This document shows positions 64 to 64,000 of a stretch of DNA of 64,000 bases, in pieces; positions within the stretch are counted from its first letter, which is position 1, and every line of letters starts with the position of its first letter. The translations under genes and the position numbers were made by a program. The notes under the pieces are model-generated. The model ran no database searches. It was not told where the DNA came from and worked only from the letters and a program-made list of their open reading frames with translations. The DNA is from Panagrolaimus kolymaensis (taxonomy: Eukaryota > Nematoda > Chromadorea > Rhabditida > Panagrolaimidae): the NCBI GenBank assembly GCA_028622995.1, contig JAJQJQ010000021.1:1984001-2048000 (forward strand), in the 5' to 3' direction.

Positions 64-2072
64 GCAGTTTATAAATTTTTTTAACAAACCCACCTTATCA
101 TAATCATAAAGGGGTGTGCGACCAGGTTTTGGTGGTGCCATTGATGAAGCATTTGTTATTGCTGATGAAGAAGTTTTTTGATAAATTTCTATCGCGCTAT
201 AATCATTTGCTGCAGTGGGCAATAATTTTTCCATAAGTTCTGATAAACCCTAAAAACCGTTAGTTGTTTATTTGAATCAGTTTAAAAAGTAAAAAATCAT
301 ACTCGATCTGTATGAATTGCAGCAATAAGGACACGCTTATCAATAACGGGGCGTTCGGATTGAAATTTATTAACCGATATTGAAGTCCACTAAAAATTTA
401 AACCCGTTACTAAACGTCTTAGACAGTTTATTTTTTCGAACCTTTAAAACGTCATTAATTATTTCATCAAGAATTGAATATATATAATAAACGACACGAT
501 CCTCCAAATTTCCACCTTTCATAATTTCTTTGAGTTTTTGAACCAAAGCTGCCACACATTTTGCTTCCTTTGACTTTGGTTCACGTCGTCGAAGCCATGA
601 TCTCTCAGTATTGGCTTTAAAATCAGTGTCTGTATTCTAAAAAAGTACCAAAGCTTTGTTGGATGGTCCAGTTTTATAATTTTATATTTTTCCTTACTTT
701 TACAACAAAAGTTCCCCAAGAAGATGGAAATAATTTTTTTATTATTGTTTGCACTGCTGAAATGGAATCCGGCATTTCTTCAACAAATTCATGCAAAACA
801 AGAATTAATATTTTGGAAATAAATTTTACTGCCTCTCCATCGAGTTTCATTCCGGGGTTTATTCGATTTAAAACCTAAAAGTTTTTTTATATTTTTTATA
901 TATGCATTCAAGCAAAAATCAAAACAGTTTTTTTAAAAAAATTTTCAGTGGTAAAAATTTAACTTTTTTTTATTATTCATTTTATATTTTAATTTGTTTT
1001 GAGACTTGAAAAAAGCTAAATTTGAAATGCCCAGTTTAATTATTTTTTGGAAAATTAAATCTTGATTCTTGAGCACTATTCTCAAGAAAATTATCAAAAA
1101 AACAGTTTATTAAATTTAAATTATTTTACCTAATTTTTAATTTTTTGTATAAAAGGCTATGTATGATAACCGACCATAAACTAGCCCGATTCCTTTGCAG
1201 TTTTTTAATTTTGTTTTTGAAACCCTAAAAAAATTACAACACACCAATTCAGTTTAAAAAATATTAAAGCAATATTTGTTCTTAAAACAGTTAAATTCAA
1301 AAAAAAGTTTTTCCCAATAAAATGAAAAATATTTTTATTTTTTCATACTTCTTTCGCCCGTACAGTTTTATTCCCAATTTTTTAAACTCAAGACAGTTTA
1401 TTTTATTTATTAGTATTATTTTGCGAGATGATTAACAATCGCGTTAACCATAAAGACAGTTTATTAAAATAAAAATAAAGGTTTTTAAACGTTTGCTGCA
1501 AAGAAATTTGGAAAGTGGTCTACCATAAAGAAATATATGAAGATTTTATTGCAGTTTTTTTTGAAAATATTTAAAAAAAATTTCTTTTTAAAATATGTAA
1601 AGCAATTGCAGTTTTAAAAATGCAAAATCTATGCTTGGAACTTAACAGTTAAATGTAAGAACGAAATCTTAGAGCAGCAAATAAATAGCAAAGTATTTTA
1701 TTTCCAACTTCTAAAATCCTGCACAGTTTTATTCCATAAATTTAAATCAAAATTAAATAGCTTATTTAATTCACCCTGCAGTTTTAAAAATCCAAAAAAT
1801 ATCTATTTCCTTTCCGCCTTTAAGCTGAAAATCCAGTTTTTTCCTCTTCCTCCACAAATCGAATTATCCATTAAAAATAGCTAATATTTTTGTAAGTGAA
1901 CTCTATGTGTCGTCTTCCCGGTATTAACGTCTTTGGACAGTTTTATCCTCTTTTTTCTTTAATCCTTTTTACTTACCATATAAACGCGTTCAACAAATAT
2001 TTTATCCCATGCTTCAAGTCGCTCATTTTTACGTTGTTCTCGAAGTTCTTCTCGAGTTCTAATTGTCATCAT
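64..2072 (-). CDS. sos-1: Son of sevenless (SOS), 5' exons: double histone-fold region, partial
   Basis: Ras guanine-nucleotide exchange factor acting at the membrane downstream of receptor tyrosine kinases; only the N-terminus is inside the window. Five exons in gene order: 2072-1977, 874-698, 636-442, 389-303, 249-64, all joining in phase 0, 247 codons in total. The next donor is GTAAGG at 63-58, so the gene continues beyond the left edge. The spliced product matches the SOS tandem histone-fold module: first fold about residues 33-91 (starts VLNRINPGMKLDG, ends WGTFVVK), second about 105-180 (RRREPKSKEAK, VYYIYSILDEIINDVLK, then a segment resembling the ITKQDIKVAMCADKVL helix of SOS), ending in YDYDKVGLLKKFINC. 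DH, PH and RasGEF domains would lie outside. The start ATG at 2072 is preceded by a possible trans-splice acceptor (GAGACAG). Intron 1 is 1.1 kb and full of CAGTTT motifs. The exon 3 donor is an unusual GTTCGA. Confidence 0.82.
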
Positions 2073-3162
2073 TTTCTGTCTCTCACAAAAAGCAGCAGTT
2101 AATTAAATTAAAATTTCAACCCAGTTTCAACTAATGACAGTTTTAAAATAATAATAAATTTCTTGCAGTTTAAAAAAAATATATATGAAAATAATAATAA
2201 TAATATAAATATTTATTTCATTAAAAATGCATCACTTTCTTTCTTTTTTTTGCCAAAAAATAAAAATAAATAAATATAAATTCTTCTTTTCTTTCTTTGC
2301 GGTTCCCTAAAAAAAATTGAAAGGTCAATTGTCCGATTATCCCGATATTCTTCTTTTTTTATGGCCATCTTTCATTTTTCGTTCGCGCCTTTCGATAGAA
2401 TGATGGAAGAAAAGAAACGGCAATGAAAAGAATATATAAATAAACCGATCGAAAGAAAAAAATGGATTAGAAAAAATGGAAGAAAAAAAGAGGGAAAAAC
2501 TAAATTTAAAAAAATTTGAATATCGATCAGTTAAAAATTAATTTTCTCTGGCACAGTTAATCCTAAAAGTTCTTGAACTTATTTATAAGAAATTGATATG
2601 GACTCAGTTAAAGTTAAAAACAAAAAGGAAATTAAAGAAAAAGGTGGCAGTTATAAACTTGATCAAGACCCAACGTGAATGGACTCAGTTAAACCTCGAA
2701 AACTTTGATTTTGCTTTAAAAAACACAAATTCCCAAAAAAAGGCGAAAGAAAGAATGGCAAATTTTAGAATTTGTGATATTCAAAACACATTTTTCATGA
2801 TGGATTCAGCGTAGATTTAAAAAGTAAACAGTTAACCAAAAAAATTGCTGTTATGCTAATCTGAGCAGTAATTAATTTTGTGAAAAATAAAAACAAAATG
2901 GAAAAATAAAACAGCAAAAAAAGGAAGCAATTATTAATGGGATATTAAAAGCGTCCAAAGCGATCCAGTTAAACCTCGAAGACCTTTAATTTGCTATAGA
3001 AAAAAGATGCAAATTTGCAAAAGGGTGAAAGAAAAAAAAAGAATAAATTCAATCAAACTGAAATACAATATTATTAAAAAGTTTTAAGTTGGTTCGAATT
3101 AGCAAGAAGTCAGTTTATTTCTAAAAATCTTGAATTAATTTAAAAAAAAGATGCGCCAACTC
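2073..3162. other. sos-1 upstream region, no gene seen
   Basis: No reading frame with coding character is visible. The stretch is A/T-rich with several CAGTTAA motifs (2096-2170, 2529-2690, 2829, 2969, 3110). The sequence just upstream of the sos-1 start would contain its promoter or outron, but no promoter element can be named. Confidence 0.4.
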
Positions 3163-3359
3163 ACAAGGGAACCACCAGACATGTAAGCTCGATTTCGATA
3201 TTCTGTTTCGGTAGAAAATTAATTTAGCACTTTTTAAGACATATGGCAAAATCTTAGCGGCGAATGGAAGATGAAAAAAAAGTTATGACTCCTCGAATAT
3301 TCTAATTTTTGACGCTTTTCCTTATCAGTTGCTAAAGCTATTCCCTATTTGTTGTAAGT

Positions 3360-3425
3360 ATGGTGTAGGCGAGAAAGGCGGAATGACCATGCGATGGAAG
3401 TCGTAGGTTCGAATCCGCCTTGTGA
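3360..3425 (+). other. tRNA-like block in left arm of FB-1
   Basis: Contains TGGTGTAGGCG (A-box-like) and, about 45 nt later, GGTTCGAATCC (a consensus B-box). The T-stem is only partly paired and no convincing anticodon arm could be drawn, so this looks like a tRNA-derived Pol III promoter rather than a functional tRNA gene. The inverted copy is at about 4617-4690. Confidence 0.55.
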
Positions 3426-4332
3426 TTTTTCGTTTTTTTACCCTTATTTAATCATCTTTTTCCGCTTTTTATGTTAAATATTAATGAAAGTTATTGTTTT
3501 TTAAACATTTTTTCTTGTTTCATGGCTATTTTTAAATTATTAATCCATTGAATTTTTGTATAAATTTAATGTCGAAAATTCGTTAATTGAGATTTCATTA
3601 CTCATTGAAGTAAAACAATCTTTGCTGGTGAATGATTTTTATTTAATTGCGGCTATTTACTTTTTTATAGAAGCGTTGTTTTTTAAAAGAAAAATATGCT
3701 CGCACTTTTTCTTGTGAAGCATTAGTAACAAGATTGGAAGTTTTCTATGAATTTATTACACGGTGATTGAATAGGTGAATGAACTTTCATATGAGTTACA
3801 TCATGCTTTAAAACATTTTTTCATAATTCCAGAATAAACGTTGCATTTTCAATTTTCACTTGCAAATCTTTATTTAAATTTTCTTTGTTTTTTTTTTCGC
3901 GCCCAAGTTCTAAAAATTTGGAGGATACCCTTTAAGGATGGGTGGGAATTTTTGTTAATGCTGATAAAAATTGCTCATTGACTTATGCAACCAGAGCTGT
4001 TGATTAATCGACCGATTAATCGATAATCGACAACTCTGGACACAACCAATCTTTTCTTCGAAAAAAATAACAAATTTTTTTCCTTATTAAAATGTCTCTT
4101 TATGAAAGTATGTTTATTTTTATAATATTTAATTAATTTTTTTAAAGTGATTTTGCAAAATCTTGATTAATACTTTTATATTTTAAAGCGTTTTTCTTTT
4201 TTTTGACCCTTTTATATAAAATAAAAAAACCAACTTTAATTATCAAAATCCCCTTACTCGTTTGAAGGTAAAGCAATAAGACAAAAAACATGAAAAAATG
4301 TTTAAAAAACAATAACTTTCATTAATATTTAA

Positions 4333-4572
4333 AGGGAGTGTCCCAAACGATGAGAATAATTTTACTACGACGGGTGTTCCTAGCCCGAAAGTTTCATTGT
4401 CTCAAAAGCTTACAAAGTGCTACGAATTTTTGTAGCTTTTTGTAGCATTTAGAGAAAATTTCGTAAGCTTTTGAAAAAACTTTGTAAAACTTTGGAAGAC
4501 TTTGAGACAGTGAAGAAAAACTTTCGGGCTACACCCGCTGTAAGGGTTTTCTCATCGTTTGGGACACTCCCT
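4333..4572. mobile_element. TTAA MITE copy 1, nested in right arm of FB-1
   Basis: A 240-bp element with terminal inverted repeats starting AGGGAGTGTCCCAAACGATG. It is flanked by TTAA at 4329-4332 and 4573-4576 (a TA duplication is equally compatible). The uninterrupted left arm of FB-1 shows the empty site (TATGTTAAATATT), proving insertion after FB-1 formed. Interior repeats contain AGCTTTTG and CTACAAA. A second copy, in opposite orientation, is at 50862-51105. A TTAA target suggests a piggyBac-like driver; a Tc/mariner-type driver cannot be excluded. Confidence 0.88.
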
Positions 4573-4887
4573 TTAACATAAAAAGCGGAAAAAGATGATT
4601 AAATAAGGGTAAAAAAACGAAAAATCACAAGGCGGATTCGAACCTACGACTTCCATCGCATGGTCATTCCGCCTTTCTCGCCTACACCATACTTACAACA
4701 AATAGGGAATAGCTTTAGCAACTGATAAGGAAAAGCGTCAAAAATTAGAATATTCGAGGAGTCATAACTTTTTTTTCATCTTCCATTCGCCGCTAAGATT
4801 TTGCCATATGTCTTAAAAAGTGCTAAATTAATTTTCTACCGAAACAGAATATCGAAATCGAGCTTACATGTCTGGTGGTTCCCTTGT

Positions 4888-7486
4888 CAGTTAAATTTCA
4901 AAAATGAAAAAAATAATACATTCAAGGCAGGTATTAATTAGATCAAGAACATGATTGGATCGAGTTAAATCCCTAAAATCCTTGATTTTGTGCTAATAAA
5001 CGCGCAAAACAGTAAAAGAAAAAAAAGATAAGTCTCGTGCAGTAAAATATTTTGGAATAGTAAAAGTTTTAAATCGGATTACAAAAAATAATAAAAATCA
5101 ATATCAGTTAATTCCAAAAAAAGCCTTGAGTTTATCAAAAAACAAAAAATATATGACTCAAAACTAATCAATTTTTTTTAAACCTTTCAAAAATGAAAAA
5201 AGAAAAAGTTAAAAATATTTCAAAAAAAGAAAGAAAAAATAAAAGAAAATAGCAAAAGTTTTTAATCAAAAAAAACTTTTTCTCTCTCATCTTCGTTTTT
5301 CGTTGTTGTCATCGTCAAAATACATTTTTATATTTTTGGGTTCAGCTGTTAGAGAAAAACGAAACGAAACACGAACGACGAAAAGGAAGAAAACGAAAAC
5401 GATGACGATGACACAAAATTTGAAAAACAGGCGCGCACTTTATTTTTATATATTTTTTTGCTTATTTTCACACACGAAAAAGAATTTTTTTTTTCGTTTA
5501 AAGCATTAATTTTTTTTGTTGCTTTAAAAAATAACAAAAAACGATCGAAACCTTTTTTTCTTCTAGCTTGCTCCATTGGCGGCAGATTTTTTAAAAAAAT
5601 AGAAGAATTTTTTTTTCCTTTTTCGCGCCACACTTTTTTTTTACTTTCTTTTGCTTTGCTTTTCGATTGCTCTGTCTCTCACTTCCCAAAATTTTGTGGA
5701 GAGAGAAAAGAAAAAAATGCAAAAGTGTTTTTCAGTGTTTCATCTCCCATTTTTAATGTCGTCAAAAAGGCAAAAGGAAAATAAGAAAAGGAAGAAGAAG
5801 ATAATTTAATAGTTTTTTAGTGATCGCCGATAACTTATTTTTCTTTTCCTATTTTCTTTATTTCTCTGCCCTTTTTTCCCTTTACTTGCTTTTTTTTTTG
5901 TTTCCCGTTTTGTTTAGTGGCGCTGGATGGCTGGCTGACTGCTACCACTCAGAGAAAGTGTATAACTTTTTTTACACATTCCCTTCATTTATTTTTCTCC
6001 TTCCAGCCTTTCCCAAATAAAGGTGAGTCGATAATGTTGGTGATTGGGAATTTAAAAAAGGTAAAAAGTGAAGAAAAGAAATTTGACCACAAAAAAACTT
6101 GAGAAGAGAGAGAGAAAGACATGATTTAATTAAAAAATTCAATAAATTTGGTAAAAACAGTTTTAATTTTTTTCTTAAGATCAAACATTATAGTTACCAC
6201 AATTTTAAAGAAGAACACAGTTTTATTTTAATTAAAAGGAAGTTTTTAAAGGTAATTTATGTTATTACTCAACAGTTTTTAAATTGAAAGCCAGAAAAAA
6301 ATGGTGAGACAGTTTTAACAAATAAGGAAATAAAGCTATTTTCTCGTTAATTGAAAATAAATAAAATGTTGGTAAATTAGAGCTTGTTTTAGAAGAAAAA
6401 ATTTCAAGTAGCACAGTTAATTTTTTAATAATTATTTAAACAATATTTTGGTAGAATGATAATTACAAAGATTACAAAACAGAGGTAATGAATACAGTTT
6501 TTAAAAATATACTAAAAATAAACCCGATCGGCTCAAACTTAATAAAAAGAAGTTTTTTATTTATCATGAATGCAGAATTTTTTTTATATGCATTTGGATG
6601 GCAGTTTATTTTTGTTATTTTATTATTCTTGTTTTTAACAGTTACAAAATATGATTATATTTTTTCTAAAAATCGCATAGTAATATAAACGACAAAACTG
6701 ATAAGAAAAAAAATTGTATGTTGATAATTGTTATACAGTTTTTTTAGAAATTAATTTTTCTGTTTTACAAAATTACAGGTTTTATTACGTTTATTTTTAT
6801 TCAGACAGATTTTATAAACGCCTTTTTTTATTTTTTTTTATTATAAGCTTCGAATGTCTTCGGACTGCTATGAATTTTTTTGAATGCAAATTATATTAAG
6901 ATGCTCCTCTTCGTAAAAAAACATTGTTATGTTGCTTTCATTCACAGTTTATATTCAAATTTCATAAATAAAAGTCCTCTTTCATACTCGCACGTTAATG
7001 ATAAATTTCAAAACGGTGAAAACAAAAAACACAATAAAAATTACAAAGATATCAAAGCTGAGTCAACTTTGTTCCGAGTGACAACATGAAAGCATGGAAG
7101 CTTTTAAAAAATTCAGTTTACAGCGTTTACAATTTATGAAAAGAAAATTAAAAAATATGGAATCAAAAAAATTTATTATAAACTGTTGAAGAATTTCGTT
7201 ATTTTTTTAAAAATTTTTTTTACTGGCGTATGGCGTTTCGGTTGTGGTACTTTGACAAAAAAAACTGTGTCTTTGCTTTTTTAATCAATAACTTTACTTT
7301 CTTTTTTTATTAAATAAGTAAAAAACTTATTTGTTACAAAGTTGTTCCAAAAATATGTAGTAGTAGTCTCATGTCTATCTAATTAGATGAAGAAAAAAAA
7401 AATTTAAAAAAAAGAGCAAGGAAAAAAAAAATCAATTGATAAAAAAGTAAACCTTTTTTATTCATTGCTTCTTTCGACAGGAAAAA
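4888..7486. other. Intergenic: low-complexity tract plus motif domain
   Basis: 5280-6120 is a poly-T/poly-A, purine/pyrimidine-tract region; its open frames encode only phenylalanine/lysine-rich low-complexity peptides, which I do not regard as genes. 6150-7122 again carries dense CAGTTT motifs. The motif polarity flips between 7122 and 7184. No gene recognised. Confidence 0.5.
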
Positions 7487-8703
7487 ATGTGTATATCAAT
7501 TTCAAATGGAAAAATATGTTTATTATTTTGTTTAATTTTATCAAATATTTTATTGATTATTTCTGTAATTTCATTGATTAATATTTTTAACAATCACGGT
7601 AAATACTGCCTTTTATGATTGTATTTGGGAAATTCTTTTTATGGGTTTTTAAAATTTTATTAGCGTAAAAACTGTTTTTGATTTTTTATATCTGAACATT
7701 GATAGCCGCTTGTAAAACACAAAATAAATAAGAATAAAAACTGTAAAAAAAAAGAACTTATAATTCCAAATTTAAACTTTTTATAAATTTAGACAAAAAA
7801 AACTCTAGTTATCTCAGATTAGGTTTTGCCATAAAATTAAATTAGAATAATTTTGTCTTTCATTTAAATTAAAAAAATATATTTTACTGAGAAATAAAAC
7901 TGCATAATGATGATTGTTAGTGTAAGTGAGTTCTTACTTTTAAACCTTTTTATTTTTCTTTCATTTTTTCCGTTATTTTTTAATTAAAAAAAACTGTTGA
8001 ACGAGGCTATAACACAAAAAGCAAGCTAATAAAGAGGTATGCCAAAAAATAGAAATGGTTAGAAATAATTGCAAAGTTATTCTAAAATCACGAAACAACC
8101 AAATTCTTTAAACAAATAACTTAAAATTTTATTTGGAATTTTTTTTTTTCCTTATCTTTAACTTTTTTTGTTTGAAAAACTGTTGTATGTTGTGTTTGGA
8201 TGAGTTTTATCGAAATTTTGGGGCTAATTTTACAATGATTGTTTTTTTTTCACTGTAAAATTACTTTTGTTCTTGTAGCTCATTCATATTCGATCAATGA
8301 AATCAAAAAAGAAGACATCCAACTCCGAATGAAAATTTCTATTTGGTTAATAATTTTTGGCGAAATTTTAAACTGTTTGATATTTTTAAATGTCGCAATA
8401 TTTGGTTGGTGGGAAACTCGCCCAACTCAATGTTATATTGGAATTAAACGTGGTTCATTTATGGTTCGATATCTCTTTGGTTATTTGATTATTATCGGAA
8501 TCGGTATTGGATTTATTATTCCATTCGAGATGCATTTTTCTTATTCTTCAAATTTATACTTATTATTATCCTATATTTTTTCAATTATTTTAACGGCATT
8601 AGAAGGAATATTGGGGTTTTTTACTTCAAGAAAAATGTATAATTTAATGCGAATTGATCGAAACAAAAAGCATAGCACTTTGAAATTTTTTATTAATGTT
8701 TAA
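7487..8703 (+). CDS. Four-transmembrane protein, uncharacterised
   Basis: Two exons, 7487-7598 and 8279-8703, joined across a phase-1 intron (donor GGTAAATA, acceptor TTCTTGTAG), encoding 178 residues. The start ATG follows TTCGACAG, a plausible trans-splice acceptor. Four hydrophobic segments are visible: about residues 11-33 (LLFCLILSNILLIISVISL), 55-80 (WLIIFGEILNCLIFLNVAIF), 96-118 (LFGYLIIIGIGIGFIIPFEM) and 124-147 (LLLSYIFSIILTALEGILGF). A short loop holds ETRPTQCYIGIKRG. The tail is basic. The topology resembles nematode tetraspan-type orphan families, but there is no signature I recognise. The stop codon is itself part of a TAAACTG motif. Confidence 0.7.
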
Positions 8704-10229
8704 ACTGTAAATAAAAGAAGTTAAATTCTAAATATTGCAAATTGAAATTTCCTTCGGTTAATTTTTGGTATGAAATTTTAGAAATTTTTTAACTCAAAAG
8801 TTGTTTGAGCCGGATTTAAAAATTCATCTTCGGCGTTTGTGATTATGAAAGAATAAACTGTCTTTGAGGGAGGCTTTCTATGTATTTTTGATTTTTGAAA
8901 CTTTTGCTTTTTATGCAAAAAAAATTTTAAACTTATTTTTAAACTGTTCCTCAAGAAGACGGTGAATTTTGTAACAAATTTTTGAATTTTATTTTAAACC
9001 GTAGCTCAAGAATTGAGATATTGGTTAATTAACTGGTCCATTATCCAACGTAAAAGAAGACAACAAAAAGATTTGAAGCATTTACACATTCAAATGAATT
9101 AATTTTTTAAAGTTGCACTAATTTTTGTGGCAGTCGCTTTTTACGGAATAGCTAAAAAATTAAATTTAAAAAAAAATTGAAGGGTATATTAGCCATTTGG
9201 AAATCAGTTAATTTTAAAATAATTTCGTGTATTAAAATTTTATTAACTACGAGTAAAACTGTACGCATTTTTAAATATTTTAACTGTCATCTTAATTATG
9301 ATATTTTAAAATAATATATTTCATCCAAAATTATAATTTTTTTTAAACTGAATCTTTGGAATGTATTTGTAAGGTAAATTTAAAAAAAAAAACTGCAAAA
9401 GACGATGCACATCGCTGAGTAAAAAATTTTAAAAAATTAATTTGTTTTTAAAAATTAAACTATGTGTAAAACTAATTTAATTCTTCTTACTTTCCATCAT
9501 TCCAAGGCGAAACTTTAAAGCTTATAAAAAATAACTTAAAATGACTTCAAAACAATTACCCACTGCAAAAAAAAAATAAACTTAAGGTTGCATCATTTTT
9601 TCTAACCATTTATCATTAATTTTTTTTATATATTTAAACTGCAATTGTGCAACACCAATGTTAATTTTTAGGTGTTGGAAAATTTATTAAAGCTTTTTTA
9701 ATTTTTTTATTTGATATAACTGGATTAATACAATAATAAATAGGAGGTTAGAATAATTAAATTTAAAACTGTGTTCGTTTCGTTTTAAATCTAGATTAAT
9801 GCGAATTAACAAAACTATATAAGCTTTTCCATACGTTTAGTAAAGCTCCGCCGAAAAAATAATAATATTCTTTCACAAAAAAATTTTATAATTAATGTTT
9901 TATAATTGACTTGGTTAAAAAAGTAAAGGTTTTATTACAAAAAGAAACTTGTGATATACCCCTAGCAGCTCTTTTGTCTTTTTTAACTTTCAAGTCTAAT
10001 TAGTTATTTGAGAAAAATTGTGGTCTATTTTCACAGTGTCGAAAAATAAATAACAAAACTTTTTTAATAAAAATAAAACTGCGGCTGTTTGTATGTCGGT
10101 TTTTACTTTTTGTCATTTCTCTTTGACATCACAAGATTTTAAAATTTAATATAAAAATAACTGACAACGAAGATATTTTCGCTTATTTGTGTTTTGAAAA
10201 AATAAAAATTTACATAAAAGTAAAACTGA
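8704..10229. other. Intergenic motif domain, no gene seen
   Basis: A/T-rich sequence with scattered AAACTG motifs. No reading frame above background and no repeat element with recognisable ends. Confidence 0.4.
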
Positions 10230-12756: not shown

Positions 12757-12761
12757 ATAAC

Positions 12762-12953
12762 TGTTGTAACCTTTGATACAACAAGGAATAAGGTTTATAT
12801 TTATTCTTGCTTGACAGCACAAATTACAGAACAACAACAGATAACAAAACTAGCAAAGGCTAAACCAGCGAGAGTGGGCAATGGAAGCGAGCAGCGATGC
12901 AAGACAAGCGTGTCGAGACTCAGCACTCTTTAAACAGGTGTGCGGTTGCAACA
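12762..12953 (-). repeat. 3' LTR (192 bp)
   Basis: Near-identical to 17540-17731, with one difference seen (CAACAG versus CAACAC). Termini TGTTG...CAACA. Flanked on the outside by the ATAAC target duplication and inside by the polypurine tract at about 12954-12966. Confidence 0.95.
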
Positions 12954-13046
12954 CTCTTCCACCCTCAATAAATAAGCTTAGCTTAACAATTACAATAAAA
13001 TTAACTAACAGTAACTAACAAACAATAGGCGGAGTTCGTTGAACCA

Positions 13047-17405: not shown

Positions 17406-17539
17406 GTTTTTGAAAATTCTTTACCAAGAGATTCACAGCACGGGATTCGTCAGTCCAAGGCTTCCACGGTTTTGAGATGAGAGCAGCGGCGAGTCGAAAA
17501 TAGCACCAAAAATAGTACTAATCACTTTCGGCACCAGTT

Positions 17540-52700: not shown

Positions 52701-54030
52701 ATTTGGTTGCCTACGCAGTTTTTTTATAACGCCCGCCTTTCATCCTTTCCAGTTTAAAAAATATTCCTTTTTGTGTTTTACTTTAAACGTTTTCTTGCTG
52801 TTGTTCTCAGCTTTTGTTTTAAAAATTCAACAGTTTCTTAAATAAGTCGTCAAACCTTTGTAGTTTTTTTGTTGTTGACATTAATGGTGTATAGTTTGTT
52901 AGCTATTCTTAACAGTTAAAAATAATATTTATTAGTAATTTTTTAAGTAATTTTTAAATATAATGCACATCCATCCGTCAGTTTTCGTTATCATAAAAAT
53001 AAATTGTCTGACAACAAGAAGATCATTGAGCAGTTATTTTTCTCCTTTTGCCCTCTCTACCAGTTTTAAAAAAAGGATTCCTTTTCTGCTTTAGCCACAA
53101 AAATATCTATGACCAAATCCAGTTTAAAGAATGTTAAAATTCCCCAATAAAATCACGCCCTTTTTTATGAACTTCCTAAATAATGGTACCCATTTTACTT
53201 TCGTCAGTTAAAATATTACGTTAATGTTTTTAAAAATCTTTAAACTCCAACCAAAAAGCAGATGATTTTAAATTGGTAATTATCAAAAGTATAAAACCCA
53301 TATGTCCAAAAAAATTGTAAATAATAAAGTAACCAACCAATACATGTATATGACATTTTATATCAAATTTCAGTTTTAAATAATAATTAACACCCAACTT
53401 TTTTATGCTTTCAGTTTTTAACGACAGTTATAAACCTGTTGAAGTCAACACAGTTTTATTTTAATTTTATTATGGATTTCAAAAAAGATGCTTTATTAAA
53501 AACGTTTAGCATTTTCATTCCTGACAGTTTTACTTTGTAAATTTATTGCTTTTCAAATTTATAAATACTACAGTTTCCAGAATTAAAAAAAACGTTATTG
53601 ATAATGTTTTTTGAGTCTAATATAATAGTTTTAGAAACTATGTACCTCAAAATTAATAATATTAATAATGTGAAGCACATATTTCTGGTATGTATAAAAA
53701 CCAAAGTGCTAATGGATTGAAGTTTTGAAAAAGAAATATTCAACAATTAGGACACGACAGTAAACTATAATATGCAGTTTAAAATTTTTTGTGGGGAGCT
53801 TAATTAACAATTATTATAAATCTTTTTTTTTATTATCTTTAAACATTCGTATTTTGGTTTATGTTGACAGTTTTTATTCAAAGTTAATTATGCAAATCAG
53901 AGAGTTGATCTCTACAGTTTTTTTGTTATTGAAATTATTGGTTTTTTCTATCAAAGTTTAAAAGTTGCTTGTATATTTTTTTTCCATCCTGTATCATTTT
54001 GATAAAGTAGATGGAAATGGTCCACAGTTT
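49730..54030. repeat. Diverged direct duplication, two copies of about 2 kb
   Basis: Copy 1 about 49730-51870 and copy 2 about 52240-54030 align in order by eye: TGTAATTTGAAACTTT (49760/52320), CAGTTTTACnCAAGTT (50090/52670), CAGTTAAAAATAATA (50304/52913), AACTCCAACC then AAAAGCA (50516/53243), GACAGTTTTTATTCAAA (51531/53872). The MITE 50862-51105 is only in copy 1, so it inserted after duplication. Most motif sites are retained in both copies although the intervening sequence has drifted. Confidence 0.65.
50862..51105. mobile_element. TTAA MITE copy 2
   Basis: 244 bp, same family as 4333-4572 in inverted orientation; ends AGGGAGTGTCCC and GGGACACTCCCT, flanked by TTAA at 50858-50861 and 51106-51109. 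High identity to copy 1 over the full length indicates recent spread. Confidence 0.9.
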
Positions 54031-54537
54031 AAAGTTTAATATTTAAAAAAGTTCTGTTATTAACATTTTTGAGCCGTAAACAATAATTTAAAAATGCCAC
54101 ATGATTAATAAATAATTTACACTGGATGTTTGTTCAACTATCATTTCTCAAAGGAATAAAAAGGCATATGTCAAAAATTTAAAAAATGAGAAAATGAAAA
54201 AACGAAAATGAACGAAACCATAGAATAAATAAATTACATTAAAGTATTATTAAACAAAAGAAGCACTTAATTTATTTTCAAAAAGAGCAGAAACGAAGAA
54301 AAAAAACATAAATTAAATTGCTTCAATATAAATGAAAATGGGATTATTTAAAAAGGCAAATTTCATGGAGAAAGAAAGAAAAAAAACTAAATTAAAAAAG
54401 TGTTTTTCGGGCGAAAGGCAGTATTTTTTTTTTGAAAGAAAGAAAAGAAAAGTTTCGGCTGCTTTCTTTTTTTTTGAAGTTAGTTTTAAACAAAAAAGAG
54501 CCACTTTGCAGCCACCGAATAAAGAAAGAAGCTAGTT

Positions 54538-55597
54538 ATGGCATTTGGAGATGTTTATGTGTATGGAAAAGATACAATTGGATCAATAATATTTGATATA
54601 GCTTTAATATTAAATTATATTTGTTCATTTATGTTATTTTTTATTGCAATTTTTATTATAAAACAGTTTATGAATCTTCAATCTCCAATTCGATCAGGAT
54701 ATTATGTTTTTATTTTAATTAATTGTGTCACACACGTTATTGTTTTTACTATTTATCGAACGTGCGAATGGATAGAAAAATATTCTCCGAATGTGACGAT
54801 TGAAACCATCGAAGGTTTTTGTCTTTGGTATCATTCATTTAATATGGGTTTTGCTACAACTATATTAGCAATAAATCGATTTACAGCATTAATATTTCCA
54901 ACAAAATATGAGCAAATTTGGAATCGACATATAACTTTATTGGCGGGAATCCTAGTAATTTTATATCCTGCAATCGTGGATTTCCCAACTTTTTATAATC
55001 CCTGCAAATTTATTATTGCGATTACTTATTCATGTAAAGAATATTCATTCCTCAATCAACTTTACGCTGCAATTCATACTGGATCTCATGCAATATTTTC
55101 ACTTTTTGTTATCATTTTTGCGTTGATTATTGCCCATCAACGAAGTTCAATAACAACCACATCAAAAATTGAATCCAAACTTCTTTTTCAATCAATTATT
55201 AGTTCGATAATGTTAACCGCTTTTGGGCTTACGCAGTTTTTTGCTGTAATTAAAATGAATTATGGAGATGAAAAGGGTTATACAATATTGAATAATTCTT
55301 CAGATATTTTTCATACCATGTATCATTTTAATTATATTATTATTAGTTTTATTGCGAGGTAAATTTTTTACGCCCAAAATACATCACAGTTTTTTTAACA
55401 AAATTATATTTTTTAGTCCATCCTTTCGACATGAATTTGTTGAATTTTATAAATTAAATTTATGCTTTAAAGGCTTAGCAAAACCTTCAAGTGCCATTTC
55501 ACCTCCAACTCCTCCAAAGCAACCTAACCACCTTCATCATCAACAAGCAAATCGAGTGGAACCATATAAATTGGAAATAACTATAACAACAATTTAA
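54538..55597 (+). CDS. Serpentine receptor, srg-like nematode GPCR
   Basis: Two exons, 54538-55358 and 55417-55597, joined in phase 2 across a 58-nt intron; 333 residues, a usual length for this class. Seven hydrophobic segments are visible: TM1 about 14-42 (IIFDIALILNYICSFMLFF), TM2 55-75, TM3 97-116 (MGFATTILAINRFTALIFP, a DRY-region equivalent typical of srg/srv receptors), TM4 130-150, TM5 180-205, TM6 220-245, TM7 about 260-275. The end of TM7 reads into PSFRHEF, the motif that closes nematode chemoreceptors. The cytoplasmic tail is proline/histidine-rich. Probably a chemosensory receptor; ligand unknown. The small intron contains a CAGTTT motif. Confidence 0.87.
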
Positions 55598-58185
55598 CCC
55601 AAAATTATTTGAAGTGTTTAAGTTTTTTATAAATATAAGGAAAATTTTATATCTTTCTTCCATTCCCCATAACTGATGGCAGTTTTTTAAATAAATGAAT
55701 TTCTGATTTATGGCTCTTTTTTTAAACAAAAAGTAAGAAAGTTAAACGAAAATCGCAGTTTTATTTTCTAATTTTACAATGTATCATCACAGTTAAACAC
55801 GATTTTTGTTGCTAATTGAAAAGTGAGACATGTCAGCATTAAAAGTAAAAAAAACAACGAAATGCATTCATCAGTTATAAACTCAAATTTCTAAAAATTT
55901 AATAAATCCAAGGTTTAGCTTACTAACTTTATATTTCTATTTTTATTTTTAAACTTTGACGTCAAAAAAACTAACCAGTTTTTTAATGAAATAAAAATGA
56001 TAATCCTTTTTTATAATAAAGACATTTCTTGTTTATGCAATGTTTGTTTGTTACAGTTTTATTTTAATTTTTTGACACCAATTTTTAGCTTTTGTAAATG
56101 AATTCCGAAAAAAACCAAGCACAGTTTTTAATATAAAAAAAGAAAATTTTGGAACCTATTTAAATAAATTATCTTTAAGATTTTTTTCTCGATGTATTAT
56201 AAATGAATTTTATAGTTTAAGCATCATTGAACAGTTTTAAGTTTTTCATTTAAAAATTTCTGCTTAATTCAATATATTTTTATTTGTTTTAATAAATTTT
56301 TTACAATTTTTCCATTTAATAAATGTTATTAAAAAAATAAAATAACCAATTTCTTTATCTAAAAATCAGCACAGTGTTTGTTGTTGAATCGAATTAAATT
56401 TATGACAGTTTTGAAAACAAAAAAACATAAGAAAGTTAATAAAAACGCAGTATTATTTTCAAACTTTTCCTTGCATCGAAGTTAAGACGAATTTGGGTGC
56501 CATTTTAAAAGTGACAGCACAGTTTTAAAAGTAAAAGAAAGCCCAAAATAATTATCTCAGTTTTATACCTAAATTCTTCAACGCAGTTTTAAATGAATAA
56601 ATAAAAAATCAAAACCTTTTTTATTTAAAGTCCTTCATAATTGGTACTATTATATTTCTAAGAATATTTTCTGATTTTTAAATAAAAAATTTAACATAAA
56701 ATTCAGTTTGAACCATAGAAATGTTTTTCCTTCCTAGTAATTTTCATTGTTCGTTATTTCGTCACCTGGAAATGATTCATGGGAAAGTTGGAAAAGAATG
56801 AATAAATGAAAAAATTAGCATAAATGTGAATGGAAAGTTCCGGGAAGGAAGCTTTGGTTGCATTGCATGAAAATGACGCGGCAATGAGCGGTGGTCAACT
56901 TGGAGGAACAATTAACAATCGGGGATCTTTGAAAATTGTTTTATAGGATCCAAATTGAGAGAAAGCTGAGAAACCGTTTGCAATTAATGAGTATGCTACG
57001 GGAATCGTTAGGGGCAATTTATAACAAGTTTATAGGACCTTAAAGAAGTAAATTAGCCTGGGATGTTGCGGAGATGGGGATCTAATCTTCCAGACTAAGG
57101 ATCAAATAATTAATTACAAAATTTTCGTAATAATTTACATAAATCAAGCTTCATGGCGGACCGAAGGTCCGCGCTTCATGGCGGACCGAAGGTCCGCGTA
57201 GCGCCTAGTAAAAAAATTAAAATTCATTAATCTCATCCGTCATTAATTATAAATTACAGCTTTTTTTTATCGATAATGAATTTTATAATGTGCCAACCAA
57301 AAACAAATCCGTGTCAGTTTTTAATAAAAAATAAATAAAAAATTTTGTTAAAATTAATGCATTTCGTGTTGATCAACTCTTGTAAGAGTTTTAATTTTTG
57401 AGATTATTTTGTTATTTTTTTAAATAAAAAAAATTACGATTCCTTACAGTTTAATTTAAGATAAAAAACGAAAATTCATGGAACCTATTTAACGAATGAA
57501 AGCATTTTAAAGAATTTTTGTTTGTGTTGTTTTATCATAGTTATAAAATAGCCATTTTCAGTTTAATTCTTTTTATTTAAAAAAATAGTTTAATTTTATA
57601 ATGTTTAACAGTTTTTTGTTTTGTTGCAGTATACCAATTTATAAAATGCTGAAAATCGTACACAGTTTTTTATTTTAACAAAAGTAATTAATTATGATTC
57701 ATTTATCATTCGACAATATGCATGAAGTTTCAGTTTTTTCTTTCTGTATCATTGATCAAAAACCAAATAATTTTCGATGTTCCCAGTTTATTTTTCAAGT
57801 CAGTTTTATGCGCATTCATACTCTTTTTTACGGTTTTGTTTTTGTCACTTAAAAAATATTTTTTAAACTTTTTATTGTGATGATGTAATCAATTTATTGA
57901 TTCTTCAGTTAACCGGTCAAAAAACGTATGTCGTTAAGATTAATTTTATTTTTTTATTTTATTTTTAAATATGAATTTATAAATTTATTAGAAAATGACA
58001 AAAATAAACTTTGATAAAATGCTTCAGTTTACCCGAAGAAAAAAAAATAATGTACAAATAAAAGAACAAAATGTGCAACTCCTTCACAGTTTAAAAAAAA
58101 AATCCTCCTACAAAAAATTTTTGAAAACAGTTTTCTTTCTTCTTCATAGTTTAAAATAAACTATGAAATGTTCCCTCCTCTGATG
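55598..58185. other. Intergenic: local duplications and a G/C-richer insert
   Basis: About 55680-55900 resembles 56402-56610, and about 56125-56225 resembles 57440-57545 (shared GGAACCTATTTAA after a CAGTTT). Between them, 56790-57240 is richer in G/C and lacks the motif. No gene supported. Confidence 0.45.
57148..57197. repeat. Two tandem 25-bp units each forming a GC hairpin
   Basis: Two head-to-tail copies (57148-57172, 57173-57197) containing GCGGACC-GAA-GGTCCGC, a 7-bp stem with a 3-nt loop, followed by GTAGCGCCTAG. Strongly G/C-rich against the surroundings. May be the end of an inserted element of unknown family; partners elsewhere in the window were not seen. Confidence 0.7.
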
Positions 58186-59156
58186 TTAAGATGAATATCC
58201 ATAACTTTTTTTATAAGTTTTTGGTGGAATTGGTGGTGGAGCAAGTTTCGTAGGAATTGATGAAGTTGAAACAGAAAGGCTTGACGACCTTGATAAATGG
58301 CAAGGTTTTGGTGGCCTTGGAGGGAATAAAGCAGGAGATTCTTCCACAACTTCCTTATCCATTTTTAATACAACTTTTTCTAATGCTCCAGCTAATATTT
58401 CTGGATCAATTTCTTGAGAGCCTTCTTCAGAAGCATCTATCTCAGTTAAACTTGTTGATGGTTCACAACATGGAGGAAGAGGTGGAGGCTTTTTCTTTTT
58501 ACCCATTATCATGCTTAAAGGTCTTGAAGCCCTTCCAGTTGGTGGCTTATCCAGAACTATTGCAGCAGGAGATAAAGTTGTGGGATAAGCGGAAGTGGGT
58601 GTGGGAGAAATAGTGTTGTTGGAAAAATTAAACGCTGCCCCAGCACTTTTTGGAGATAATGGATTTTTTGATTGTGGAAGGTTTTTCTGAAAAAAATATT
58701 CTTTGCGAAATTCAGTTTTAAAATTTTTTATTAATAAATTTCTAAGTTATGTACATTGGCGAAACTCAGTTTTTTAAACCCCATTAAAAGTCCCCGTAAC
58801 CAGTTTATTAACCATCGAAAAAAATATTTATCCACAAAAAGTCCCCAAAAATTAAAAATTAATTATTTAATAAAATCCGAAAAAAGGTACGCAGTTTAAA
58901 AAAATAAAATAAACTTACATCAAGCGTAGAGCCACTGTTACTTGGATCAGATGATTGTGAAGGCATTGCTTCGCTACCTGAGGACGCATCAGTTTTATAA
59001 CTATTTAATGGATTAAGATTTTCAAAGAATTGCTAAAAACACTATTACTCCTCAGCTTCAGCTTAAAAAAGAAATGTATAAAATCTTTACCATAGCAATT
59101 TTGCGTGGAGTTGATGGTGGAGAAAAATATGCCATTGCATTATTTAACATTTCCAT
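58186..59156 (-). CDS. Proline-rich SH3-ligand protein with SOS-like FFENLNP motif
   Basis: Three exons in gene order: 59156-59091, 59032-58919, 58686-58186, all phase 0, 226 residues. Residues 23-30 read QFFENLNP, as at the end of the RasGEF domain in SOS proteins (RFFENLNPMGN in vertebrates, from memory). The rest is serine/proline-rich with SH3-ligand motifs KKKKPPPLPP, PPRPPKP and APPPIPPKTYKK, the sort of tail that SOS uses to bind Grb2/SEM-5. No RasGEF catalytic sequence precedes it; the first exon (MEMLNNAMAYFSPPSTPRKI) is not SOS-like. It could be an unrelated adaptor-type protein, or a relic or detached piece of a SOS C-terminus. It lies on the same strand as sos-1 but 56 kb away, on the wrong side to be that gene's own 3' end. 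Confidence 0.68.
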
Positions 59157-62100
59157 AACATAAATTAAAAAAATATAAAATAGTAACTTCGTGAATCAGT
59201 TTTTTAATCTATAAAATAAAAAATAAAGTCTTAATCAATTTGGCGCCAAAATAAAAATTAGGCAGTTAATCAAAAACGGAAGTAAAAAAAATTAACGATT
59301 AAATATGTGTGTTAATTTTATAAAATGAAAAAGGGCTGAAAACGATAGGGGTTTTTCTTTTTGTTACTAAAAACTAAAAGGCGTTCTTTTTTGTTTTAAA
59401 CAATGAAGAAGGAAAAAATGGATTGTGACGGAATAATTTTTGGACGACCGAATACATATTTTTTTGTTTTAAAACAAACAAAAAAAGTGTGGTTGAAAAT
59501 GAAAAAAAAAGATGTGCACAAACACCGCGTGATTACTAATACTTTCAACTTCCGATTGGAAAGATTGAAAAATTAAAAATATCATGAAGATGTTAAATTC
59601 GCAATGACAGTTTTTTTTATCAATGTGTAGTTGTTAAGAATGATGATAAAGTTAATAAAATACAAATTAAAATTCATCCGAAGGAAGAAAGTATAAACAG
59701 TTTAGGAACATAAAATGAGTGAAAACAAAAGATATCAGTTTTTTACTTCCTTCACAAAAGGATAAAAACATTAGCCTAATCATAGTTTTTCAAAAAAATA
59801 TAATATATAGTTTATTTAATTAATAATATAAAACGAAATAACAATAAAAGATGGGTTGCAGTTTATAGTTTTTTATGTTTGACAAATTTTGTGGCTTTAT
59901 TTTTTAAGTTTAAACTTTGAAAAAACAATTGCAGTTTAACTTTCATTTTCTCTAAGTGACATATGTTTAAAAACATCTTCCTTTCGGGCACGATCAATGA
60001 CAGTTTTTATAAAATACAAAAATATCTTAATATGTGGTTAATTAGTATATCTCCGAACATAAAAATGCTTAACGGAATTCTAAACAACACAGTTAAATAC
60101 AAAATCATAAAAAAAAAAGCTTCTAAAATTGGCTTGAAAATCATACAATAATCGTCTCTAATAAAAGACAGTTACTTACAAATGAGAAAACAATAACTAT
60201 TGATTTTTACAAACTCTCAACCTCTCAAAAAATAATTTAACAATCAATGAAACAAAAAATAAAATAAAACTAAAACTTGTTTTAAAAAAAGAAAAGCTTT
60301 TTTGATATCTTTTTTATTTTTATATATAAAAAACCCCTTTCATTTCCCGGAAGTGAAAGAACAACTGAAACCTTCTTTTTTTGGAAGATCAATCATTTTT
60401 TTCATTCGTTTGATAATTTCACGCTTGATTGAAAAAAAATATTTCACAAACGTTCCATAATTTTATTATTTATTTTCGACATTTTGGAGTTGGATTATTG
60501 AACAAAAAAAACAAAAGCCTCCGCAAAATCTATTTTTAAATTCTACCGCAAAAAAAAATGGAGTAAGAAACCACACAAAAAAATTAATAAAAAGCCGGTA
60601 TTCATTTTCATCCTTTGTTTTCAAAAGTTTATTTATATGAGTGAGAAATTGATGATCGATCAGAAATCAAATTTTTTTTTGTTTCTAAAATTGGGTCACA
60701 AATTAAAATAAAAAATGAATGAATGAAAGGGTTCAACTTGAAAAAAATAAATATGTGTGGTTTTCATGTTTTTAACAGTTTTTTTTTATTATTGATGACT
60801 TCCGGCGTATGTTTCTTCATTTCTTTCTTTTACAAGTGTTTAGTTTTAGGCGCGTTTCCAAAGACATTCGTGTAAGTGAATTTTTTTTTTAATATAAACT
60901 TTTTTACGTTTAAAAATTCAGGCAATGGAATAACAGTTTTTTAATTACAAGAAAAATAAATTATTTAGCTTAGAAAAACTCTTAAAAATAACCAAAAATA
61001 AATATAACCTCCCTAAAATGGTATTGGTTCTTACTACAGTTTTAAATAAATATTTTATTATTAAAATTAAACCAAACAGTGTTGTTTCAAACCCACAACG
61101 AATAGTCATCTCAGTTTTAATTTTTTTTTGTTCTAAATTCTTTTATCGTTAAACAGTTTATTAATTAATGCCTTTATTAAAAACTGAGTTTGTTTTATAT
61201 TAAAATGCGAATTATCAATCATCTTGTCCAAGCACACAAATCCGCCATAAGCATTTGAATTAAACAAATACAAGGTTGAAAAAAAACTCATTCAGTTTTT
61301 ACTATTTTAAAACTCCGAATTCAATTTGAAAACATCTAATAAAATTCCAAAACCACAAAAAATAATTTTTTAGAATTAATTTCTTTCGAAAACCTTTCGA
61401 CGGTTTTTTTAATATTTTGGTTTGACGTAGTCAAATTTTTAATATAATAAATTCCACCAAACCCCAACCACCAGTTTCTAATAAAATCTTGCAATAAAAA
61501 AAACTTTTATTTTATGTGCTTTATTTTTGCATGAAAAAAAGAGAAAATAAACGACTCAATAAACGTAGAACCTCAGTTTTTTAAAAATTTTTTTAATCTT
61601 CACGATCAAATTTTACAACAAAACCATTTTTTTTAATTTTACAAATAATTTTACAAAATTTTTACCATTTATTCATGCCCCTTTATTATCCCTCTCTCAT
61701 TCTTCATATTTTCATCCATTGATACAGCCATGCGCCAAAGATGACCACAGTTAAAATATTTTAATAATAGCAAATGTATGCCGATATAAAACCTATTCAA
61801 TTAATATAAAAAATCAACAAAAAATATTATTTATATGCCACGAAACCATAATCACTATCGACCACCTGTTAATTCAGTTTAAAATATGTCATTGGAATGT
61901 GACACCGATAAATTATTGTTAAAAGCCTTTTTGAAACTTGGTTTAAAAAAGAAATGACATCTAAAAAAATTTAGTTATCGTAATCTTCATAAAATCATCT
62001 TTTTTTAACATTATCTTCATCATGGATTAATAGATTTCCACATTACAAATAGATATTCAGTTTAGAAAAATTTTAAAAGACTTTTTTAAATTCAAGAAAA

Positions 62101-62561
62101 TAGTTGTAACAAAATATGCTTTTCAAAATAATTATAAAGCTTCTGCAAAAAAGATGAAAACAAATACAGTTTTTACAAAAACAATTTTGATAATTATCAC
62201 TCAACATTTGCATCATTTTTTTGTTAAGGATAACGTCATTGGCAATGATTATGGTCAGTTTTATTGTTATTAGACATAAAGTTGCACTAGAGAATGCAGT
62301 TTTAATTAAAAACATAAGTCAAAAGAATTGGAGCCATCGAATTTGTAATAAACGCATAATAAAGTTAGTGAACTTTCCATTTTGTTTCCTTTGTGAACAT
62401 TTTTTTTAAATGTTTTCTGCCGCTTCAAGTGTGAGCTAACTCATGAGCTTCTTCATATGAATGCCATACTACACACAACAATAAAAATAACGCCAGTTTA
62501 TTTCAATTTATAAATTTCAAACAGTTTATTGACAAAAAAAAATAATAACAACATCAAGAAT
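59157..62561. other. Intergenic motif array, no gene seen
   Basis: CAGTTT motifs throughout, with low-complexity A/T tracts at 59330-59580 and 60240-60760. No reading frame with coding character and no element ends recognised. Confidence 0.4.
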
Positions 62562-64000
62562 TTATTCAAAAATACCACGATCAATGTAATGAAAAGCTCG
62601 AAATTTGCCAATGCGATTATCGCCTTCATAATGGAACGCATTGAAACAATTTGTACACATAAAAGCAGGATGATGAGGTATTCGATCGCTTTCATCAATA
62701 ATAAACCTAAAATTTATATCCATGATTATATAAAAGTTATCAGTTTAGAAAAGCTTACGTTGCCATATCAACTTTGCAAACGCAACATTTTGGTGATGTA
62801 CTTTTATCAGAAAGGAAAACAGGATAAACATCAATTTCTTGATTATCACTTGGATGAAGTAATCGAAGATCGGTAAAGATGAGAAGATGTTCACAATCAC
62901 CCAAATGAACAAAAACATAAGGTTGACCAAGACGAAGCAATAAATCTTTCACTTTTGTTTGAGCCATATCAGCTACTTGAGTTGAACCAAAATTGGTTTT
63001 TTTTGATGCCATGTACTTTCGGATTGGTCTAGAATATTCGATAGTTAATGGTTGCAGTTAGAAAGAATAGTTTACTCTGAAATATCTTGAGCATTTGGAT
63101 TTCGTTTGTCTATGTAAAAAGTGTCATGAACAAAGATGAATGAACTTGGATATCGATTCTGAAAACGATTTTATCTTTATCAGTTAACAACGAATATAAA
63201 ATAAAGAAAACGTACGAGATAGTAATCTTCAGGATTTGTAGCATCTTGAAAATCTTGTAAGTTTGAAAAATAATCATAAGTACAGAATATTTTATCTCGT
63301 ACTTTCGTCAATGGCATATCACCACGTAATAAGAGACGAACTTCTGCATTCAGCTGAAAAACAAAAACATCAATTAAAGAAATACGGTAAGCAGAAGCCG
63401 ATAAACTAAACCAACCAATTGTTGACGATTCGCTTGATGAGGAGTTTTAGGCGAAACAATATGAGCAGTAATAACAATATCTTTAGCAGCCATTTTTCCA
63501 GGTTCAGTATATCCTTTTCGAAGTTCACCAGGTCGATAATTGAAATATTTTCCTTTCTTTAAATATTTATGCTTCTGATTTCTTGTATTTGATTCAGCTC
63601 GAAATGCTTCAAGCACCTTGTGAACTTTAAGTTTACTTTCTTTTGGTGGACAAGCGGATGCAAGAGTGTCAATTGGATTCGTTAGAAGCAAATCTTGTAA
63701 TGTATCACTAAAAGATGATGATTAATAAGAAGGCTGTTAAAAAGGAAAAACTTACTCCATGTAATTGATAACTTCATCACCGTCATCCAAAGCAAGACCT
63801 TTAGAATTGAGAAAATATTTGAACGTTAGACGACAATCATTTTCAAGATCAGATAAATCTGGTGCTTGAATTTCTTCTTCTGTTGTTGCTGTTGAAGTTG
63901 AAGCTTGTAATTGTTGAAGATGAAGAAATGCAGGAACTTGAAAATATTCTGTTAATTTAGCATCAGCTTTTACAGCTTTTTCACGAAATTCTTCAACATT
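62562..64000 (-). CDS. SNAPC3: snRNA-activating protein complex subunit 3 (SNAPC3/SNAP50), 5'-partial
   Basis: Zinc-containing subunit of SNAPc, the factor that binds the proximal sequence element of snRNA and spliced-leader promoters. Exons in gene order: (64000)-63756, 63707-63416, 63353-63216, 63158-63076, 63028-62759, 62706-62562; phases close throughout, giving about 390 visible codons. The family signature is clear: TFYIDKRNP, PIRKYM, FGSTQVADM, LLRLGQPYVFVHLGDCEHLL, FTDLRLLHP, then CCVC and CTNCF cysteine pairs and FHYEGDNRIGKFRAFHYID near the C-terminus. The N-terminal part, rich in Gln/Ser/Thr, continues past the right edge. One donor is GTTGGT (63415). Introns carry CAGTTA motifs. 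Confidence 0.9.

What the first reader, a model, noticed from the sequence alone, without database searches (positions are those of the whole stretch)
64..63190. Strand-polar AAACTG/CAGTTT motif array across most non-coding DNA
Seen: hundreds of short sites, T/A-rich then AAACTG, spaced about 40-130 bp, filling introns and intergenic DNA outside transposons and the 12.1-21.2 kb interval. By-eye counts in the first 7 kb give about forty in one orientation against a handful in the other, roughly ten times composition expectation. Known: nematode piRNA loci carry a dense upstream motif (CTGTTTC), but this core differs, and Piwi is reported lost in clade IV, to which the host may belong. Inference: an array of mini transcription units or of binding sites for an unknown protein.
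Basis: partly seen in the sequence, partly recalled or inferred. Interest (0 to 1): 0.88.

Follow-up and report, generated by a model that had tools for sequence, protein, structure and literature searches.

The report
Fast-evolving piRNA-like superclusters, strand-polar
A roundworm, probably from a lineage reported to have lost piRNAs, carries tens of thousands of tiny repeated units by estimate, each a fixed six-letter signal followed by a 19-letter stretch that changes about twice as fast as the DNA around it, and each unit likely makes a 21-letter guide RNA for genome defence.

Summary
The core is WAACTG: 357 sites on one strand against 13 on the other in 52 kb of oriented domains. It is not genome-wide. 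It fills two megabase superclusters, each found in three homeologous contigs, of a 265.8-Mb genome that I infer to be the triploid nematode Panagrolaimus kolymaensis (Clade IV). I estimate about 25,000 units per haploid set. Orientation switches in blocks of tens of kb.

The decisive result came from aligning homeologs. The motif is conserved and flanks diverge about like fourfold sites. The 19 nt immediately 3' (+6 to +24) diverge 2.3 times faster than the flanks (95% CI 1.98-2.63), and the best-fitting interval is +6 to +24. With the fixed T-G of the motif that is 21 nt with a 5' U, preceded by AT-rich DNA and followed by a mild AT-rich dip.

I read each unit as a predicted 21U-RNA (piRNA-like) mini-gene. 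It differs from the C. elegans kind in motif, motif position and block polarity, and five Argonaute groups tested were not Piwi-like. No RNA data were available. Published small-RNA work reports no piRNAs in the relative Panagrellus, whereas Strongyloides ratti (Clade IV) has clustered 21-22U RNAs.

The parts
65..7114 (-). Minus-oriented WAACTG domain (sparse between 2.2 and 6.6 kb); the same orientation is seen just left of the window
   Evidence: 31 CAGTTT against 2 AAACTG between 65 and 7,114 (run table); strict-pattern hits at C20:1,982,233 and 1,983,331, also minus
7180..12083 (+). Plus-oriented domain, first part; sharp switch at about 7.1-7.2 kb
   Evidence: 35 consecutive AAACTG
12100..21150 (.). 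Interval almost free of units: a 1,457-aa gag-pol-like ORF (named by eye), inverted repeats and a ribosomal protein L10/L16 fragment
   Evidence: densities
21175..37534 (+). Plus-oriented domain, second part; partly aligned to homeologs on C5 and C23
   Evidence: 94 AAACTG against 6 CAGTTT in the run table; homeologs show the same polarity, 126:12 and 121:7; alignment
41119..62741 (-). Minus-oriented domain: 122 consecutive CAGTTT (41,119-61,154), one opposite site, then 11 more; part aligned to the C5 homeolog
   Evidence: homeolog polarity 2:108; alignment
36833..36863 (+). Example unit: TTTTTAAACTGT N17 GG, the one window match of the strict genome-wide pattern
   Evidence: C20:2,020,833-2,020,863; window begins at C20:1,984,001
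60000..62700 (-). Stretch used to find the homeolog (C5:2,202,223-2,204,003 and 2,204,232-2,204,936, 86 and 88% identical); also 100% duplicated 13.9 kb further on

Best explanation
The array belongs to two megabase superclusters of short units (AT-rich leader, WAACTG, then a 19-nt body that evolves 2.3 times faster than its flanks), and each unit is likely an autonomous mini-gene whose transcript is predicted to become a 21-nt guide RNA with a 5' UG, working like the 21U-RNAs (piRNAs) of C. elegans. Shown: motif, polarity, restriction to the superclusters, motif conservation, and the sharp fast-evolving interval +6 to +24 between homeologs. Inferred: transcription would start in or next to WAAC, by analogy two nucleotides before the 5' U at +4. 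The mild AT-rich dip from about +30 would help the polymerase pause and release a precursor of about 28 nt. Trimming to +24 would give the guide. An Argonaute outside the Piwi clade (AGO-like or worm-specific) would load it to recognise foreign or transposon transcripts. Block polarity is inferred to reflect a requirement read over tens of kb, such as avoiding convergent transcription of a dense array; sites come and go, often by a single base, yet off-strand sites stay at or below background. The fast body evolution is either diversifying selection on guides or locus-targeted mutation; my data do not separate the two.
For: (1) The best-fitting fast interval is +6..+24 (window-C5 sites; +6..+23 is within 1.5 log units). 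With T at +4 and G at +5 this is 21 nt, 5' U. Rate ratio to flanks 2.30 (CI 1.98-2.63) over 192 kept site-pairs, in which 24.7-38.3 kb sites count twice (C5 and C23); window-C5 alone gives 2.35 and 2.15. Of 132 window-C5 sites 100 have body above flank, 30 below, P = 1.7e-13.
(2) Seen in supercluster A in two regions and with two homeologs, and in a small supercluster B sample (body 0.768, sides 0.894 and 0.871).
(3) Fourfold-site identity is 0.874-0.878 in three exons and 0.941 in a fourth, near the flanks (0.900); the body (0.789) is lower than all of these.
(4) Ten control motifs made by permuting the core show no one-sided drop (0.904 before, 0.905 after, largest single drop 0.065; WAACTG 0.892 and 0.789).
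(5) Each WAACTG position is kept at 0.951-0.996 when the other five are kept.
(6) GC architecture: AT-rich before the motif, raised GC in the body with T/G preference at +24/+25, mild dip at about +30 to +40. C. elegans piRNAs have an AT-rich spacer and a low-Tm downstream pausing signal.
(7) Two superclusters, hits spanning roughly 2.5 and 3.3 Mb, and about 25,000 units per haploid set (estimate), against two C. elegans clusters of 2.5 and 3.7 Mb with GTTTC at 4.0 per kb. S. ratti 21-22Us form clusters of 1 and 2.7 Mb.
(8) Units rarely overlap: 10 of 353 spacings below 25 bp.
Against: No RNA was seen; transcription, strand and 5' end are inferred. Sarkies 2015 found no 5'-U-biased small RNA outside Clade V and cites absence of piRNAs in Panagrellus redivivus; a M. 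incognita juvenile library had none either, and PRG-1 was not found in plant-parasitic Clade IV species. The motif is not the Ruby motif and abuts the predicted RNA instead of lying 35-42 nt upstream. Eight of 26 host U1 promoters, read by eye, show no WAACTG or CAGTTT, so I have no link to SNAPc. Five PIWI-domain groups tested match AGO-type structures better than Piwi-clade ones. C. elegans clusters are said to lack prominent strand bias, so polarity is not predicted by the model. No YR initiator is visible. The interval scan could start only at +6 because the motif was required to be kept. The downstream dip is small (GC about 0.21 against 0.245 background).
Confidence: 0.7

Rival explanations
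1. WAACTG is the binding site of a sequence-specific chromosomal protein (for example a zinc-finger or Myb-type factor for chromosome pairing, axis or chromatin), and the array is a polar protein-loading platform without RNA.
For: A short conserved core with an AT-rich side, megabase confinement to two regions, and domain polarity over tens of kb would suit an oriented platform.
Against: A bound site should be protected, not flanked on one side only by a 19-nt segment evolving 2.3 times faster than the rest of its flanks and ending at a fixed distance. The exclusion distance near 25 bp and the GC pattern fit a transcript body.
Confidence: 0.13
2. WAACTG directs a nuclease or a replication/transcription lesion that damages the next 19-20 nt; the body is a mutation scar with no product.
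For: Elevated substitution and gaps strictly downstream; substitution classes in the body resemble those of the flanks, 58% and 56% transversions.
Against: Does not explain why the motif is kept (161 of 221 site-views against 100 of 190 for control hexamers), why sites are about ten-fold enriched with one polarity, nor the composition signals at +7 and +24/+25.
Confidence: 0.1
3. Composition artefact, an old dispersed repeat or local duplications.
For: Some local duplicates exist in the window.
Against: Shuffles and Markov simulations fail to reproduce it; apart from the core, positions show only weak preferences; only 4 of 225 aligned site-views sat in a gap of the other copy, so units are not inserted blocks; 18 of 20 arbitrary loci show no dense array.
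Confidence: 0.02

Closest known systems
C. elegans type I 21U-RNA (piRNA) loci
   Same: Short units in introns and intergenic DNA, two megabase superclusters, AT-rich upstream DNA, low-Tm DNA downstream, 21-nt 5'-U product (here predicted), thousands of loci.
   Different: Motif is WAACTG touching the predicted RNA, not CTGTTTCA 35-42 nt upstream; block polarity; body faster than fourfold sites; five Argonaute groups tested here are not Piwi-like.
Strongyloides ratti 21-22U RNAs (Clade IV)
   Same: Clade IV, 5' U, 21-22 nt (here predicted), AT-rich upstream, two megabase clusters, same-strand grouping.
   Different: No motif was found there; those RNAs were sequenced, these are not; the S. ratti clusters lie on the X chromosome, the linkage here is unknown.
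Plectus / Pristionchus piRNA loci
   Same: Short transcription units; in Pristionchus mostly within introns.
   Different: Carry Ruby-type upstream motifs (with a SNAPc-like half in Plectus); Pristionchus loci are dispersed and about equal in sense and antisense to genes.

Membership tests
C. elegans-type piRNA (21U-RNA) loci | Ruby motif (GTTTC core) 35-42 nt upstream of a T | tested here: not met
   No strong positional signal from -60 to -18; the only strong motif is WAACTG adjacent to the body. AACTGTTT occurs 20:0 by strand, but T is depleted at +7 (0.22 against 0.38), so the Ruby core is not part of the unit
C. elegans-type piRNA (21U-RNA) loci | Loci concentrated in megabase superclusters | tested here: met
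   94 of the 100 listed (of 129) strict matches lie on C3, C5, C18, C20, C23
C. elegans-type piRNA (21U-RNA) loci | 21-nt RNA with 5' U | not testable with these tools
   DNA register only: variable interval +6..+24 plus fixed TG = 21 nt
C. elegans-type piRNA (21U-RNA) loci | Piwi-clade Argonaute PRG-1 in the host | tested here: inconclusive
   143 PIWI-domain matches; ten loci fetched, five tested against the PDB, all best to AGO-type chains; the other groups not tested
C. elegans-type piRNA (21U-RNA) loci | AT-rich / low-melting DNA downstream of the RNA | tested here: met
   GC 0.19-0.22 at 8 of 11 positions +30..+40; background 0.245; body positions 0.20-0.41, mean about 0.30. The effect is mild
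S. ratti 21-22U RNAs | 21-22-nt 5'-U monophosphate RNAs, clustered, AT-rich upstream | tested here: inconclusive
   Clustering and AT-rich upstream met; RNAs not testable
SNAPc (PSE) promoters | Shares the snRNA promoter element of the same genome | tested here: not met
   Eight of 26 U1 promoters, by eye, share a CTGTC...ATTCA-type block and no WAACTG or CAGTTT; U2 could not be tested

The most novel reading that the evidence does not exclude
A Piwi-independent, self-diversifying 21U guide-RNA system in a parthenogenetic nematode: about 25,000 loci per haploid set whose start signal is fused to the guide, whose guides are renewed faster than neutral by a targeted process, and whose transcription runs in oriented blocks. 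It would be a genomically encoded repertoire with built-in hypermutation.
Probability: 0.3. Interest if true: 0.96.

Novelty: new variant of a known kind. Interest (0 to 1): 0.87.

Why it matters
Piwi and piRNAs are reported lost in Clade IV, with an open question of what replaced them. A DNA signature that marks candidate loci makes that question testable in one small-RNA experiment and by scanning other Clade IV genomes. A 19-nt segment evolving faster than fourfold sites across an array of thousands of loci would be rare evidence for diversification of guide RNAs, and block polarity is a feature that the C. elegans model does not explain.

Tried and rejected
Rejected: composition or chance; dispersed repeat or tandem duplication (one search finds only local duplicates); a general strand asymmetry of replication as the cause, since background GC and AT skew do not flip with the domains; SNAPc PSE; deaminase-like hypermutation, since A/G and C/T exchanges are balanced in the body, 71 and 77. 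A first guess of Meloidogyne as host was dropped. Rfam found nothing in the window. A paper search for 'nematode' with 'CAGTTT' showed nothing that I judged relevant from titles and abstract starts (20 of 29 listed). Searches for Panagrolaimus with piRNA (4 papers) and Panagrellus with piRNA and PRG-1 (3 papers) listed no description of such loci; I did not read all of those papers. U2 promoters could not be tested: the tool was busy each time.

Left out of counts: sites near alignment ends; sites with three or more gaps in the motif (4) or any gap in it; sites not kept in the compared copies; two C5 hits (one copy of a dispersed repeat, one isolated) in the strand-run table; 49 of 59 permuted control motifs with fewer than 15 kept sites; matches beyond the first 100 listed. 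AKTIP, gag-pol and the piRNA features not tied to a call are names from recall.
Full report
OBSERVATION. AAACTG is 4.9-fold and CAGTTT 5.8-fold above a first-order expectation in the window. The oriented blocks are a minus domain (65-7,114), a plus domain (7,180-12,083 and 21,175-37,534) and a minus domain (41,119-62,741). The wider motif is WAACTG: AAACTG 284:11 and TAACTG 64:3 in 48.2 kb of oriented sequence; no other one-base variant shows a strong bias in that direction with many sites. One hundred dinucleotide shuffles gave at most 60 and 58 sites against 162 and 224 observed. In the second minus domain an Srg receptor lies on + and SNAPC3 on -, so polarity does not follow gene direction.

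UNIT ANATOMY. Counting the first base of WAACTG as 0: about 17 nt of AT-rich DNA; WAACTG; a segment +6..+25 with raised G+C and preferences at +7 (T depleted), +24 and +25 (T/G, then G); a mild AT-rich dip from about +30 to +40 (445 distinct sites). GG at +24 is 38 against 8.3 expected among 350 sites. Only 10 of 353 same-strand spacings are below 25 bp. The nine exon pieces that I checked hold 5 sites in 3.3 kb, 1.5 per kb.

HOST. A UBC-domain (AKTIP-like) protein of the window matches Panagrolaimus at 71%, Panagrellus at 48% and Halicephalobus at 42%. The genome has 265.84 Mb in 807 contigs. The P. kolymaensis paper gives a triploid assembly of 266 Mb in 856 contigs and 49 mitochondrial contigs (passages read, PMC10374039); 856 minus 49 is 807. 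I infer P. kolymaensis, Clade IV; the genome tool names no species.

GENOMIC DISTRIBUTION. Of 20 arbitrarily chosen 10-kb stretches, 2 are dense: 92 sites on C18, with a sharp switch near 1.7 kb, and 23 sites on C50, all one strand; the others hold 0-14. A strict pattern has 129 matches against 22 for its reversed control; of the 100 listed, 94 lie on C3 (6.98-10.01 Mb), C18 (0.25-3.57), C5 (0.52-2.61), C20 (0.13-2.56) and C23 (0.16-2.62). The C3 hits run close to the contig end, so that cluster may be cut. Searches with window DNA group C20 with C5 and C23, and one 4-kb probe groups C18 with C3 and C42: two superclusters in three copies each. Polarity is the same in the homeologs. A looser pattern has 6,216 matches against 1,614 control; C1 and C2 give 85 in 23.3 Mb as background. 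With 58 such matches per 877 WAACTG in 134 kb of cluster DNA and none in 180 kb elsewhere, the total is roughly 70,000-80,000 units, about 25,000 per haploid set. This is an estimate. Adjacent pattern hits on C3 and C5 (87 typed hits) agree in strand in 21 of 22 cases within 10 kb, 12 of 14 at 10-30 kb, 8 of 26 at 30-100 kb and 15 of 23 at 100-300 kb; distant pairs (0.3-1 Mb) in 301 of 641. Blocks are therefore tens of kb long.

EVOLUTION. I aligned window 47-63.7 kb to C5, and 24.7-38.3 kb to C5 and C23. Motif sites were kept in 161 of 221 site-views (each pair read both ways, 4 gapped set aside), against 100 of 190 for control hexamers, and in all three copies at 49 of 68. Over 192 kept site-pairs the body +6..+24 diverges at 0.211 and the flanks at 0.100, ratio 2.30 (1.98-2.63; sites of 24.7-38.3 kb enter twice). 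For the 132 window-C5 sites 100 have body above flank, 30 below (P = 1.7e-13). The best interval is +6..+24, with +6..+23 nearly as good. Fourfold-site identity is 0.876, 0.874, 0.876 and 0.878 for three exons (one in two comparisons) and 0.941 for a fourth exon of 51 sites, 323 of 365 pooled. Against these the body is about 1.8-2 times faster by my own arithmetic. Ten permuted control motifs (of 59; the rest had fewer than 15 sites) with 245 sites show no side effect on average, 0.904 and 0.905. In supercluster B, C18 against C42 gave 0.894 before, 0.768 in the body, 0.871 after (24 kept views, that is 12 pairs). Of 111 ungapped site-views not kept, 62 differ by one base and 49 by two or more.

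MECHANISM. The fixed T-G plus 19 variable nucleotides is 21 nt with a 5' U. C. [quoted passage not shown] The same register here would start at A +2 and end near +29, just before the dip. S. ratti, also Clade IV, makes clustered 21-22U RNAs with AT-rich upstream DNA and no motif found (passages of PMC9203780). The units look like what the DNA source of such RNAs would be, with a motif attached. Transcription, the Argonaute and the function are inferred.

AGAINST. Sarkies 2015 found no 5'-U-biased small RNAs outside Clade V and cites absence in Panagrellus redivivus (passages of PMC4323106). A Meloidogyne incognita juvenile library showed no piRNAs (passages of PMC4524723), and PRG-1 was not identified in plant-parasitic nematodes (passages of PMC5934874). 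Five PIWI-domain groups of this genome resemble AGO-type proteins more than Piwi-type ones; the other groups were not tested. Polarity is not explained by the C. [quoted passage not shown]

Noticed in passing
window 60000-62700: An identical (100%) copy lies 13.9 kb further on in the same contig (C20:2,057,891-2,060,591), just beyond the window: a very recent tandem duplication or an assembly artefact.
   Followed up: no
window 19690-19983: Fragment of ribosomal protein L10/L16 (Pfam E 3.2e-18) beside repeats in the unit-free interval, possibly a captured or processed copy.
   Followed up: partly
window 62758-63057, minus: SNAPC3 gene, a subunit of the snRNA-activating complex, lies at the edge of the minus domain (Pfam E 2e-27).
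   Followed up: partly
window 18782-19591 and 21518-22636: Self-inverted (palindromic) stretches, 96.7% and 90.8%.
   Followed up: no
window 3158-3478 and 4572-4892: Inverted repeat pair 99.7% identical; a piece of it recurs at 50.8-51.1 kb; looks like a young mobile element.
   Followed up: no
G000 contigs C1, C5, C8: The sequence TTTAAACTGTTTTGGGTGAATTTTCATGG recurs outside the superclusters, probably inside a dispersed repeat.
   Followed up: no
unit positions +17 to +19: Divergence in the body is not even: +17 to +19 (0.12-0.17) vary less than most of +6 to +12 (0.18-0.27).
   Followed up: partly
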